Below, piece by piece: positions 1 to 59,490 of a DNA stretch of 64,000 bases. The stretch is from Atopobium sp. oral taxon 810 str. F0209 (GTDB lineage: Bacteria; Actinomycetota; Coriobacteriia; Coriobacteriales; Atopobiaceae). The stretch lies in contig NZ_KE952935.1 in NCBI RefSeq assembly GCF_000466405.1, forward strand, positions 56,847 to 120,846. Reading direction: 5' to 3'. The first letter of the stretch is position 1; every line of letters begins with the position of its first letter. Position numbers and translations under genes: made by a program. The notes below the pieces were generated by a model. That model made no database searches, was not told where the DNA came from, and worked only from the letters and a program-made list of their open reading frames with translations.

Positions 1-70
1 TGGCAAGCAGGGCCGTGCTGCTTGAAAGAATGCGTGGCCTTTGACATGCGATTGCGGAAATAGACCGAAG
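1..70. repeat. Truncated end of a 31/41-bp unit array (family 1)
   Basis: The window opens inside a unit matching the arrays at 11.2 and 27.3 kb. The text TGGCAAGCAGGGCCGTGCTG, then TTGAAAGAA, then GTGGCCTTTGACA at position 34 fits the 41-bp form of the unit. Only the last one and a half units of one arm are visible, and the sequence decays after about position 65. No gene is seen before the tRNA-Ser terminator. Confidence 0.7.
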
Positions 71-10909: not shown

Positions 10910-11231
10910 GCCCGTTGTGTATCTTTCTTAGATGCGTATATACGCGCATAAACAGCTGGTATATCGCATATAAGAAAACATGCATCTGGTTATGGCTCCT
11001 ATCCACGCCCCAATCTATCCCAACCTCAGGTTGAAACAGCTAATTTGATAAGCCTTCTAGCTGCGTACCTGTGCAAAACATGCAGGTAGAAATCCTGCCG
11101 TTGCAACCTCAGGTTGCAACATCTTGGAGCAGGACGTGCGCGAAAAGCACATGTCCGCACTATCAACTCGCCTTGTAGCAGCGCATCGTAACCAACAGAA
11201 GCTACACCTCATTTCACACGAGATGCCAACA
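10910..11231. other. Non-coding stretch with paired palindromes
   Basis: No gene is seen. CAACCTCAGGTTG occurs at 11021-11033 and again at 11104-11116, the second time extended to a 9-bp-arm hairpin by flanking GTTG and CAAC. A TACCTG...CAGGTA inverted pair lies around 11066-11087 and includes a GCAGGTAGA motif. The stretch leads directly into the unit array at 11232. Confidence 0.6.
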
Positions 11232-11530
11232 CACCCTGTTTCATGCCAGATACCAAAAGCCACGAATCGTTTCAACCAACAAGGCTTTGCTTGCCAAACG
11301 CCACGTTCTGTTTCAGAAAAAATGTCAAAAGCCACAGATCTCTTCAATGGCCTTCACGTTTTCGCAGGTAGATTTTTTGGGCGTGAAGAGATGTGTGGCT
11401 TTTGGCTAAAAAAGTGAAGTAGAACGTGGCTTTTGGCAAGCAGGACTGTGTCATTTGAAGTAATCCGTGGCTTCTGACAAGCAGGGCCGTATCGTTTGAA
11501 ATGGTATGTGGCGTTTGGCAAGCAGAACAC
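11232..11530. repeat. Inverted two-arm array of 31/41-bp units (family 1, copy A)
   Basis: The left arm has four units facing left, with GCCAC ends at 11232, 11263, 11304 and 11335 (steps 31, 41, 31). The right arm has four units facing right, with GTGGC starts at 11395, 11426, 11467 and 11508 (steps 31, 41, 41). A unit reads approximately GTGGCTTTTGGCA, seven variable bases, TGAAAYNGAAY; the 41-bp form has ten extra bases in the middle. The 60-bp central gap holds CTTCACG/CGTGAAG arms around CGCAGGTAGATTTTTT. It lies between the 3' ends of two convergent genes and shows no coding potential. Confidence 0.85.
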
Positions 11531-11565
11531 TATGGAAGTAAGCCGATAGTATGGGCTCGTTGCAT

Positions 11566-11594
11566 AACAAAAGACCCCTCGGAAAGGGGTCTTG
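11566..11594 (-). terminator. Intrinsic terminator of tRNA-Leu
   Basis: A perfect 9-bp stem AAGACCCCT/AGGGGTCTT with a five-base loop is followed on the minus strand by TTTTGTT, 9 bp past the tRNA end. Confidence 0.85.
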
Positions 11595-11602
11595 GTCATT
11601 CA

Positions 11603-11689
11603 TGGTGCGGGCGAAAGGACTTGAACCTTCATGAGATTGCTCTCATACGGACCTGAACCGTACGCGTCTGCCAATTCCGCCACGCCCGC
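11603..11689 (-). tRNA. tRNA-Leu (anticodon CAG)
   Basis: Class II tRNA on the minus strand with acceptor GCGGGCG/CGCCCGC, anticodon loop TTCAGGT (CAG), variable arm TGAGAGCAATCTCA, T arm GTTCAAGTC and an encoded CCA. Confidence 0.95.
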
Positions 11690-24257: not shown

Positions 24258-24285
24258 GATAGTCTTGTAGTGTCTCCACTCTCCG

Positions 24286-24600
24286 CAGACGGTTCAAAAC
24301 CGTCGTCGCAAGCCTTTCACAAACGGCCGCATCGTCCCCGACTCCCACAAACGGTTCAAAAGCGTCGCTCTGCTTCCACAAAAGTGCTGCTCAATTTTTT
24401 ACTGAGGGTGCTTTATGAACCCGTTGTCTTCCATTTAATGCAGACGGTTCAAAACCGTACCAAACGACTCGAGAAACCCCAGATAAAAATTGGCGTAAGG
24501 GCACATTTTGAACCCGATGTGGGAAAAAGGGTGCTTATTGAACCGCCTGTAGGGATAAGCGTAGGCAAAAGCGCACCTTGAACCCGTTGCAAAAAACACA
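24286..24600. repeat. Array of TGAACC/GGTTCA units (family 2)
   Basis: No gene is seen in 24258-24716. GGTTCAAAA marks facing left lie at 24291, 24353 and 24446 (steps 62 and 93, multiples of 31). TGAACC marks facing right lie at 24416, 24509, 24539 and 24579 (steps 93, 30, 40). Flanks are partly shared (ACGGTTCAAAACCGT; AGGGTGCTTNTTGAACC). An imperfect inverted repeat of about 12 bp, with TCCTGAA and TTCAGGA, at about 24610-24660 may help end typA transcription. Confidence 0.65.
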
Positions 24601-24716
24601 GATAGCAAGATGCCTCCTGAACTGCCTACAAAGTTATAAGAGCAGATTCAGGAAGCATATCTCCTAGGTGGCTATAAAGAGGTAAGCCAAGCAAAACTTA
24701 CCGAGCACAACAAAGC

Positions 24717-27091: not shown

Positions 27092-27300
27092 GCACATCTT
27101 TTCTTTGAACCTAAAGCTTCTTTGCGATGGTAGCGCACTTGAACAAAGTACGTGCAGCTATAAACAACATGCACTTCTTGACCACAAAAAAGCGCCAGAC
27201 GCATCTGATGGCTAAGTTTCTGACTTAGATTGATAAAAAGTGTTGCTTGGTTCTCCTAAATGCTTGATCTACTTCCGTGATCGCAGATCACATGTCAAAC

Positions 27301-27580
27301 GCCACACCTTGTTTCAAGCAGCGCGGCTTTGCTTGCCAAAAGCCACGTTCTGTTTCAGAAAAAATGTCAAAAGCCACAGATCTCTTCAATGTCCTTCACG
27401 TTTGCGCAGGTAGATTTTTTGCGCATGAAGAGATATGTGGCTTTTGGCAAAAAAAGTGAAGTAGAACGTGGCGTTTGGCATCTGGTGTGAAACAGAGTGT
27501 GGCTTTTGGTACCTGACATGAAATGGAATGTGGCGTTTGGCACTCGGTGTGAAATGAAACGTGGCTTCTGGCCTAGATGG
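27301..27580. repeat. Inverted two-arm array of 31/41-bp units (family 1, copy B)
   Basis: The left arm has GCCAC ends at 27305, 27346 and 27377 (steps 41, 31). The right arm has GTGGC starts at 27437, 27468, 27499, 27530 and 27561 (four steps of exactly 31). The central gap is again 60 bp and holds CGCAGGTAGATTTTTT. About 170 bp around the centre are nearly identical to copy A, while the outer units share only the consensus. The rest of 27092-27616 shows no gene. Confidence 0.85.
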
Positions 27581-27616
27581 TGGATTATCTATCACTCCGT
27601 ATCACTCACTTAAACA

Positions 27617-41774: not shown

Positions 41775-42515
41775 ATGACAGAACAAGATATTCACATGCT
41801 TATACAAGAAGCACAACAGTATGGTGTGCAGCTGAGTAATGAGAAGGCAAAGAAGCTTTTAAAACATCTTGAATTGGTTATTGAGAAAAATCAGTTTATA
41901 AATCTTACACGTATAGTGGACTGGCAGGATGGTATTGATAAACATGTTTTGGATTCTTTAACTCCCCTAACCATTCTTCAAGATTTGGGTTTAACTGAAA
42001 AGTCTCATTGTTTGGATATTGGTACAGGAGCTGGTTTTCCTGGTATTCCTCTCTCAATCTGTTCTGAAGCTCAGTTTACTCTCATTGATTCCACTGAAAA
42101 AAAAATCAAAGAAGTACAGTACTTTATTGATAGACTTGAACTTGATAATTGTTCTGCTCAGGCAGTGCGTGCTGAAGAATTGGCTAAAAAACAGTCACAA
42201 AAATTTGATTTTATTTTAGCTCGAGCGGTATCTCAGATGAGTACACTCATTGAATATGCTTCGCCTCTACTTTCTCAATCTAGCTATCTTGTTGTTATGA
42301 AAGCTGTGCCCACTGACGAGGAATTTAATATTTCACTCTACGCAGCTGATGTATGTGGAATGACCTATGTTTCACGTGAAACACTTGAACTTCCTCACAA
42401 CGCAGGCACTCGTAGTATTTTTGTCTATCAAAAAACAGGAAAAGCAAAGATAAAAATGCCAAGAAATGTGGGAGTTGCTCAACATCATCCCTTATGTCCT
42501 AAGGAGAAAAAGTAA
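41775..42515 (+). CDS. rsmG: 16S rRNA (guanine-N7) methyltransferase RsmG
   Basis: A 246-residue SAM-dependent methyltransferase acting on G527 (E. coli numbering) of 16S rRNA. The SAM motif CLDIGTGAGFPGIPLSI (about 76-92) and the N-terminal INLTRI pattern are typical. GAGG precedes the ATG at 41775. A perfect parS site is embedded near its end at 42368-42383, so the encoded YVSRETLELPH is shaped by a DNA site. The gene is visibly more A+T-rich than its neighbours. Confidence 0.95.
   Translation: MTEQDIHMLIQEAQQYGVQLSNEKAKKLLKHLELVIEKNQFINLTRIVDWQDGIDKHVLDSLTPLTILQDLGLTEKSHCLDIGTGAGFPGIPLSICSEAQFTLIDSTEKKIKEVQYFIDRLELDNCSAQAVRAEELAKKQSQKFDFILARAVSQMSTLIEYASPLLSQSSYLVVMKAVPTDEEFNISLYAADVCGMTYVSRETLELPHNAGTRSIFVYQKTGKAKIKMPRNVGVAQHHPLCPKEKK
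42368..42383. promoter_or_regulatory. parS centromere site 1 (inside rsmG)
   Basis: Perfect 16-bp palindrome TGTTTCACGTGAAACA, the universal ParB nucleation site, within the rsmG coding sequence. Confidence 0.97.
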
Positions 42516-58959: not shown

Positions 58960-59300
58960 TGTCCAAGTGACACGAAGTGGCAAATAGCGGCATATAGGAA
59001 AATGCGCGCCCGAGGCATATGTATAACCACTAAATGACCGATGAAAAAGACACTTTTCAGCACATGCAAGTTCACTATTTGGAGCACAGGTGGGATACCA
59101 ACCACAAACACAACCACAGATGGTTCAAGTTTCGAAGTAAGCAAGCGTAAAACGCTGGTCATTTTTTTCGCAAGTCCGAAGGATGAACCATCTAGCGAAA
59201 CGAACCATCTATCGAAATTTTGACAGCGCAGGAAAAGGGTCACTGTGCACCGCCCCACCCCAAAAGCCCCCTCGTTCATCGCCTACTTGGGAAAAGCCCA
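58960..59300. other. Non-coding region with inverted GGTTCA/TGAACC marks
   Basis: No gene is seen. AGATGGTTC at about 59119 faces TGAACCATCT at 59184 and a second GAACCATCT at 59202, in a 17-bp direct repeat (GAACCATCTAGCGAAAC). It looks like a decayed relative of family 2, with TTTTTTTCGC between the arms. Confidence 0.45.
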
Positions 59301-59490
59301 TCGTTTATCCCACTCGCAAAGGGCTCTTATTTCATCATCCCACTTGCAAAGGGTTCCTTTTTTCACGTTTTGCTCCACAAAATGCCTGGTAAATTTTAGG
59401 TTGGTGGGGAATTATGAACCCAATTCACCGTCTGCTGATGAATTATGAACCGAATTCCGATGGAGCTGATGAATTGTGAACTCTTTTTGC
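59301..59490. repeat. Inverted two-arm array of 30/31-bp units (family 2 relative)
   Basis: The right arm has TGAACC or TGAACT marks at 59415, 59446 and 59477, exactly 31 bp apart, in units starting GAATTATGAACC and ending GCTGAT. The left arm, read on the minus strand, has CCCTTTGC units 30 bp apart with TGAAAT. The centre contains TTTCACGTTTTGC, recalling the TTCACGTTT of the family 1 centre. Confidence 0.7.

What the first reader, a model, noticed from the sequence alone, without database searches (positions are those of the whole stretch)
11232..11530. Helically phased, inverted two-arm repeat array (copy A)
Seen: eight units whose GTGGC or GCCAC anchors are at 11232, 11263, 11304, 11335 and 11395, 11426, 11467, 11508. 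Steps are only 31 or 41 bp, about three or four DNA turns, and the two arms point away from a 60-bp centre. Unit sequence is loosely conserved while spacing is exact, so spacing seems to be what is selected. This fits a protein assembling on one face of the helix or a large folded RNA. It is not CRISPR: repeats are degenerate and inverted, and spacers are short.
Basis: seen in the sequence. Interest (0 to 1): 0.85.

Follow-up and report, generated by a model that had tools for sequence, protein, structure and literature searches.

The report
Phased inverted repeat arrays in Olegusella
Between the genes of a little-studied human-associated bacterium sit dozens of non-coding DNA elements, each a fixed centre with two outward-facing arms of repeats spaced at exactly three or four helical turns, which look like landing rows for an unknown DNA-binding protein and make up a new variant of the bacterial mosaic repeat elements.

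Summary
Copy A (window 11222-11546) is one of about 37 array sites in this ~1.95-Mb genome (genus Olegusella). Olegusella massiliensis has 9 sites, and Olsenella massiliensis has one copy that probably arrived with an adhesin locus. None was found in the other 395 genomes sampled from the class. Anatomy: an asymmetric ~130-bp core and two outward arms of a non-palindromic unit, TGAARYRRWRYGTGGCKTTTGRCA. Of 231 steps, 205 (89%) are exactly 31 or 41 bp (34 of 35 in O. massiliensis), although the linkers are only ~52% identical. There is a grammar: the first step out of the core is 31; after that the left arm steps 41 and the right arm mostly 31. At least two more families in the window (24283-24628, ~59250-59490) have different units but the same ~31-bp step, and apparently related cores. 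Arrays lie mostly at gene 3' ends, often beyond the terminator. Sites are ancestral and lose or gain whole units. Cores group by species, not by site (concerted evolution). Pairing between the arms is poorly kept at variable positions, so a DNA-protein platform is favoured over a folded RNA. Best reading: a BOX/BIME-like, foldback-type non-autonomous element whose arms are phased binding sites. The protein and any host function are unknown.

The parts
11222..11546 (.). Copy A: complete two-arm array (left arm 4 units, core, right arm 4 units)
11300..11430 (+). Core of copy A as modelled in R1 (131 nt, L2 anchor to R2 anchor)
   Evidence: the model finds the cores of both species
11353..11378 (+). 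Central motif TTCACGTTTTCGCAGGTAGATTTTTT, asymmetric, the most conserved non-unit part
11323..11346 (-). Left-arm unit L1
11292..11315 (-). Left-arm unit L2 (31 bp from L1; A6 tract 11317-11322 between them)
11251..11274 (-). Left-arm unit L3 (41 bp from L2)
11224..11243 (-). Left-arm unit L4, degenerate: GTTTCA half in register, GCCAC lost
   Evidence: sequence read directly
11384..11407 (+). Right-arm unit R1
11415..11438 (+). Right-arm unit R2 (31 bp from R1; A6 tract 11408-11413 between them)
11456..11479 (+). Right-arm unit R3 (41 bp from R2)
11497..11520 (+). Right-arm unit R4 (41 bp from R3); a degenerate counterpart is all that is left at this site in O. massiliensis
27265..27590 (.). 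Copy B of the same family (left steps 41, 31; right steps 31, 31, 31, 31)
1..60 (+). Outer end of a third family-1 array cut by the window edge
24283..24628 (.). Family 2 array: unit around TGAACC...GTGGG, steps 30/41/93, T6 core; about 33 places in the genome
59250..59490 (.). Family 3 array: TGATGAATTATGAACC units at 31 bp, core TTCACGTTTTGCTCCACAAAATGCCTGGTAAATTTT
10966..11225 (.). Neighbouring dispersed repeat next to copy A: two CAACCTCAGGTTG palindromes 83 bp apart
11569..11594 (-). Intrinsic terminator of the tRNA-Leu gene (11606-11689), between that gene and the array

Best explanation
This is a lineage-specific, non-coding, intergenic mosaic repeat element, of the broad kind of BOX or BIME but built like a foldback element. 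SHOWN: a conserved asymmetric core, two outward arms, a bipartite non-palindromic unit (TGAAR and GTGGCKTTTGRCA, about one helical turn apart), steps fixed at 31 or 41 bp with a left/right grammar, placement mostly at gene 3' ends, vertical inheritance of sites, whole-unit gain and loss, and within-genome homogenisation. INFERRED: each unit is a binding site; a protein docks on successive units three or four turns apart, so that all subunits lie on one face of the DNA and the arms carry two oppositely oriented rows that can meet over the core. The most likely owner of such a platform is a recombinase or transposase that once spread the element; recombination between copies now expands, shrinks and homogenises them. 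A present host function is not shown.
For: Dispersed family: 128 matches in the own genome and 27 full or partial core hits among 43 matches, at about 37 sites. Spacing: 117 steps of 31 and 88 of 41 out of 231. Grammar: first step 31 in 25/28 left and 24/27 right arms; further left steps 41 in 38/41; further right steps 31 (36) or 41 (10) of 51. Two rare right steps of 21 bp are again one turn shorter. Family 2, with a different unit, steps at 30 (38), 93 (18) and 41 (7). Linkers drift but lengths hold (against the neutral gap rate). The core appears to be shared by otherwise different families, including a hybrid with a family-3-like left arm and a family-1 right arm. Sites are shared by the two species, and three loci of the window keep a degenerate end unit in O. 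massiliensis (36 is the fetch). Cores form one group per species with 100/99 support, and the ortholog is not the nearest core. Convergent placement 15/36 against 6/52, p 0.002. Published precedents: BOX, RUP and SPRITE repeats are over-represented between convergent genes and were read as parasitic (PMC3049150); tandem repeats in long inverted arms of Galileo hold multiple transposase-binding sites (PMC3688188).
Against: No transposase or binding protein was found: the Y1 transposase family that owns REP/BIME is absent from all three genomes, and no transposase lies in the one gap between paired arrays, at L019. The ends are not inverted repeats of each other, and no target duplication could be tested because no clean empty site was found. 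No site was seen to be freshly inserted. A+T content of the unit is not dominated by a ten-base period, so there is no sign of intrinsic wrapping. Every binding step is inference.
Confidence: 0.5

Rival explanations
1. Host chromosome-organisation sites: the arrays are docking rows for a nucleoid protein, a topoisomerase or a condensin loader, kept between convergent genes where positive supercoils collect, as DNA gyrase binds BIME-2 in E. coli.
For: Placement at gene 3' ends and between convergent genes, beyond terminators; spacing kept across families with different units; sites kept in two species. BIME-2 binds gyrase (PMC2817692).
Against: Three loci of the window have lost nearly the whole array in O. 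massiliensis without visible change nearby. Three of five genomes of the genus have none, although gyrase and condensin are general. Mobile repeats show the same convergent bias (PMC3049150). No ten-base A+T rhythm. No periodic map along the chromosome could be tested.
Confidence: 0.2
2. Neutral satellite-like repeat: no protein is needed now; unequal recombination copies whole units, so the spacing is inherited rather than selected.
For: Orthologous arrays differ by whole units; cores are homogenised within each genome; many arrays are partly degenerate.
Against: Linkers have drifted to 52% identity with only about 5% length changes, against 30-50% expected from the neutral gap rate. The arm-specific grammar, and the same step in families with unlike units, are not explained by copying alone.
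Confidence: 0.18
3. A large folded RNA: transcripts through the array fold into a long hairpin that ends, protects or regulates neighbouring mRNAs.
For: Both strands fold far better than shuffles, z -9.2 and -7.9, as any inverted array must.
Against: In the facing units L1/R1 the variable positions fail to pair in up to 13 of 21 sequences, and compensatory changes are few (covariation term -0.18). Single internal units do not fold, z 0.4, 0.2, 1.0 and -1.2. 26 of 50 gene 3' sides have a terminator before the array, control 6 of 50. No Rfam match in the arrays reaches a gathering score; weak hits are miRNA-precursor hairpins far below their cut-offs.
Confidence: 0.07
4. Autonomous mobile element that is still moving, with the G060 copy as a fresh jump between genera.
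For: A copy in another genus far more like the Olegusella copies than the coding DNA of the two genomes is.
Against: That copy ends at the same IS256-type remnant as L055 of O. massiliensis, and both loci carry a shared adhesin stretch of 859 bp at 92%, so it probably travelled as a passenger. All comparable sites look ancestral.
Confidence: 0.05

Closest known systems
BOX elements of Streptococcus (boxA-boxB(n)-boxC)
   Same: Intergenic, dispersed, composite; a variable number of tandem inner units; number of units differs between strains; over-represented between convergent genes; no known transposase (PMC3049150).
   Different: BOX varies in its middle and keeps its ends; here the middle is kept and the two arms vary, point outward, and step at exactly 31 or 41 bp. 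Unrelated host; I made no direct sequence comparison with BOX.
REP / BIME (enterobacteria, Pseudomonas, Stenotrophomonas)
   Same: Mosaic arrays of short units in inverted orientation outside genes; some hybrid between families; linked to protein binding (IHF, gyrase, PolI) (PMC2817692).
   Different: REP units are imperfect palindromes tied to a Y1 (RAYT) transposase. Here the unit does not fold and no Y1 transposase was found in the genomes.
Foldback / Galileo elements of Drosophila
   Same: Two long inverted arms made of tandem repeats around a centre; repeats shown to hold multiple transposase-binding sites in Galileo (PMC3688188).
   Different: Eukaryotic; arms are long terminal inverted repeats around a transposase gene or spacer, with conserved terminal sequences. 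Resemblance of layout only.
Neisserial intergenic mosaic elements (NIME, dRS3)
   Same: Intergenic mosaic arrays of repeats with inverted short repeats (PMC3049150 background; PMC9778887 listed).
   Different: No 31/41 step is described there as far as I know; sequences not compared here.

Membership tests
REP/BIME (RAYT-associated) | Unit is an imperfect palindrome | tested here: not met
   Four internal units fold no better than shuffles (z 0.4, 0.2, 1.0, -1.2); only the right terminal variant GTGGCTTCTGCCAC is palindromic, z -3.6
REP/BIME (RAYT-associated) | Y1 (RAYT) transposase in the genome | tested here: not met
   PF01797 not found in G000, G004, G060; control rings in E. coli and 4 others
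REP/BIME (RAYT-associated) | Many dispersed extragenic copies in alternating orientation | tested here: met
   about 37 sites in G000, each with two inverted arms where complete
BOX-type composite repeat | Composite of distinct modules with variable tandem number | tested here: met
   Core plus variable arms; orthologous arrays differ by whole units
BOX-type composite repeat | boxA/boxB/boxC sequences | not tested
   No direct comparison with BOX sequences was made
MITE / insertion-sequence derivative | Terminal inverted repeats | tested here: not met
   Right end GTGGCTTCTGCCACA and left end TTTGACAYGC..GGAA, read by eye from the listing, are unlike each other
MITE / insertion-sequence derivative | Target-site duplication at a clean empty site | tested here: inconclusive
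   O. massiliensis sites keep a degenerate end unit, so no clean empty site was found
CRISPR array | Near-identical repeats separated by unique spacers of constant length, one orientation | tested here: not met
   Units degenerate, inverted arms, linkers 7 or 17 nt
Structured RNA (Rfam) | Covariance-model match at gathering score | tested here: not met
   Only tRNAs in the window; sub-threshold miRNA hairpins only
Helically phased protein-binding array | Unit spacing constrained to whole turns across diverged copies | tested here: met
   31/41 in 205 of 231 steps; family 2 at 30/41/93
Helically phased protein-binding array | A cognate binding protein | not testable with these tools
   No binding data; no candidate gene singled out

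The most novel reading that the evidence does not exclude
A new kind of chromosomal DNA scaffold: several mutually different unit families built on one shared core, each read by its own DNA-binding protein that polymerises outward in steps of three or four helical turns with a left/right grammar (31 then 41 on the left, 31 on the right), organising or insulating the chromosome between convergent genes.
Probability: 0.15. Interest if true: 0.85.

Novelty: new variant of a known kind. Interest (0 to 1): 0.52.

Why it matters
Bacterial mosaic repeats are usually defined by palindromic hairpins and a Y1 transposase. Here the conserved property is spacing, the units are not palindromes, and no Y1 transposase was found. 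Several families with different units keep the same ~31-bp step, which makes the question of what reads the spacing directly testable. If a binding protein is found, this would be a natural, many-copy system for studying how a protein counts helical turns along a chromosome, and it would warn that some intergenic repeats are platforms for proteins rather than for RNA structure.

Tried and rejected
CRISPR: rejected (units degenerate and inverted, linkers 7 or 17 nt). Known structured RNA: rejected. RNA hairpin kept by selection: arm-to-arm pairing was counted; conserved positions are trivially paired, variable ones pair poorly. REP/BIME membership: tested and not met. Phage or plasmid origin: no blastn match in 50,697 phage or 72,556 plasmid records; 15 single-unit hits in viral contigs were put down to chance without further reading. 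Autonomous transposon: the one gene between two arrays close together (L019) is a 338-aa protein with no Pfam match, judged by eye to resemble an AbiEi-type regulator, not a transposase. Functional theme of neighbours: 18 of 20 flanking proteins have Pfam hits and most are ordinary metabolic, regulatory or housekeeping proteins without a theme. Intrinsic bending: no ten-base A+T rhythm. Partition sites: the units carry TGAA(A/G), which recalls the parS half TGAAACA, and parS-type sites exist at 42366, 42515 and 42578, but the rest of the half-site is not conserved across units, so ParB was not pursued. Literature: five papers mention Olegusella together with 'repeat'; none appears from its listing to describe its repeats.

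Full report
OBSERVATION. Seven of eight anchors are exact; the outermost-left unit is degenerate but its GTTTCA half is in register. The steps are 31, 41, 31 to the left and 31, 41, 41 to the right of a 60-bp centre. In the 64-kb window 31 bp is the most frequent short-range self-similarity offset and 41 comes next in the listing, level with several others.

EXTENT. The window is part of contig C3 of a 1.95-Mb, 38-contig genome. The 401-bp stretch has 128 matches there at about 37 sites, and many contig ends lie inside arrays. Of 40 close relatives only G004 has it. A sequence model of the core (R1) finds it in 3 of 140 genomes of the family and in the same 3 of 398 genomes sampled from the class: this genome, G004 and G060. 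Three other genomes of the same genus lack it.

ANATOMY. The unit is TGAARYRRWRYGTGGCKTTTGRCA over 249 loosely matched units. The core runs from the second left to the second right anchor. It holds A6, T6 and A6 tracts and the motif TTCACGTTTKCGCAGGTARATTTTTT. Of 231 same-orientation steps 117 are 31 and 88 are 41; the centre distance is constant in 26 of 32. Measured from the core, the first step is 31 in both arms (25/28 and 24/27). Further left steps are 41 (38/41), and further right steps are 31 (36) or 41 (10) out of 51. In O. massiliensis alone 34 of 35 steps are exact. The right arm often ends in a special palindromic unit, GTGGCTTCTGCCAC, seen in both species at an orthologous site.

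SPACING VERSUS SEQUENCE. The 17-nt linkers of 41-bp steps have mean pairwise identity 52%, with 86 of 88 distinct. Orthologous noncoding DNA of the two species shows 442 substitutions and 34 gap events in 3709 aligned bases, or 0.077 gaps per substitution. At the linker divergence this predicts length changes in roughly 30-50% of linkers (my estimate, Jukes-Cantor). Lengths within 3 bp of 31 or 41 but not exact make up about 5%. So spacing is kept beyond what sequence drift would leave. Recombination between linkers and missed units with gaps are caveats.

MORE FAMILIES, ONE PLAN. Family 2 (window 24283-24628; about 33 places in G000, 3 weak matches in G004, none in G060) has a different unit around TGAACC..GTGGG and steps of 30 (38), 93 (18) and 41 (7). 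Family 3 (about 59250-59490; 5 places in G000, 1 in G004) steps at 31. Their centres look related by eye: family 1 TTCACGTTTTCGCAGGTAGATTTTTT, family 3 TTCACGTTTTGCTCCACAAAATGCCTGGTAAATTTT, family 2 CTTCCACAAAAGTGCTGCTCAATTTTTT. At L036 a family-1 right arm shares a core with a left arm that looks like family 3. No statistic was computed for this core resemblance. Common to families 1 and 2 is TGAAMC followed about one turn later by GTGG. I read this as one ancestral plan in which step length is kept and unit sequence diverges.

CONTEXT. Flanking genes are convergent in 15 of 36 two-sided cases against 6 of 52 junctions in the window (Fisher p 0.002). Divergent cases are 2 of 36 against 6 of 52, which is not significant (p 0.46). 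The gene calls are my own and approximate, and a few of the counted sites (the family 2 and 3 loci of the window) are not family 1. An intrinsic terminator lies between gene end and array on 26 of 50 gene 3' sides, against 6 of 50 on the opposite strand; coordinates for this were partly hand-set. Flanking proteins show no theme.

EVOLUTION. At least six array sites are orthologous between the two species: L017/L056, L018/L051, L023/L058, L024/L052, L032/L053 and L035+L048/L050. Orthologous arrays differ by whole units. At three loci of the window (copies A and B and the family-2 site), O. massiliensis keeps only a degenerate end unit, so these sites are most simply ancestral and mostly lost there. 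Yet cores form one group per species (100/99), and the ortholog is not the nearest core. That is concerted evolution, by gene conversion or copy replacement; doubled cores of two types at L024 and L028 look like its traces. The G060 copy ends at the same IS256-type remnant as L055, and both loci carry a shared adhesin stretch (859 bp, 92%), so it probably came with that locus. IS256-type ends abut arrays at L054, L055 and G060, and similar ends lie in or beside units at contig ends C7 and C34; the IS family is judged by eye from the end sequence and the start of the reading frame.

MECHANISM. The folded-RNA reading predicts that facing units co-vary. They do so poorly at the informative positions: in L1/R1 the seven variable middle pairs fail in 1 to 13 of 21 sequences, five of them in 6 or more, and the consensus-fold covariation term is negligible. 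The pair counts do exceed shuffles slightly, which relatedness alone can cause. The low single-strand energy follows from the inverted layout. Single internal units do not fold. A row of DNA-binding sites on one face of the helix explains the bipartite unit (two half-sites a turn apart), the three- or four-turn steps, the one-turn exceptions (two steps of 21 bp), and the same step in families with other units. Who binds is unknown. The Y1 transposase of REP/BIME was not found, and no transposase was seen in the one gap between paired arrays or among the 20 flanking proteins scanned.

COMPARISON. It works and evolves most like BOX elements and BIMEs: composite, intergenic, between convergent genes, unit number variable (PMC3049150, PMC2817692). 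It fails the palindromic-unit and Y1 tests of REP. In layout it resembles Foldback/Galileo elements, whose tandem repeats include transposase-binding sites (PMC3688188). I therefore call it a new variant of a known kind, with a small chance that it is a new sort of chromosomal scaffold.

Noticed in passing
window 24283-24628 and L113-L132: A second dispersed array family with different units (TGAACC-based) and 30/41/93-bp steps, about 33 places in the genome, nearly absent from O. massiliensis.
   Followed up: partly
window 59250-59490; L158, L160-L163: A third array family with GAATTATGAACC units at 31 bp and a core resembling that of family 1.
   Followed up: partly
window 10966-11225; L024, L034, L039, L048: A further dispersed repeat: two GTTGCAACCTCAGGTTGCAAC-type palindromes about 83 bp apart around CTGCAGGTAGAAA, often next to a family-1 array but also alone.
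   Followed up: partly
L036:2086-2260: Hybrid element: family-1 right arm and a family-3-like left arm on one shared core.
   Followed up: partly
L024:2093-2160 and L028:2114-2180: Tandem doubled cores of two different types, suggestive of recombination or gene conversion between arrays.
   Followed up: no
L054:2250, L055:1975, L088:8205; contig ends L013:22, L048:23: Ends that look like IS256-family insertion sequences abut arrays, which may be preferred IS targets as reported for REP sequences.
   Followed up: partly
L055:3642-4499 and L088:11993-12851: A stretch at 92% identity between Olegusella massiliensis and Olsenella massiliensis, within a Cna_B/SpaA-type adhesin gene in the latter: a likely horizontal transfer that also carried an array.
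   Followed up: partly
window 42366, 42515, 42578: Three parS-type sites (around GTTTCACGTGAAACA), so the window may lie near the chromosome origin.
   Followed up: no
L019:2946-3962: A 338-aa protein without a Pfam match, judged by eye to resemble an AbiEi-type regulator, lies between two array copies 1.5 kb apart in the same orientation.
   Followed up: partly
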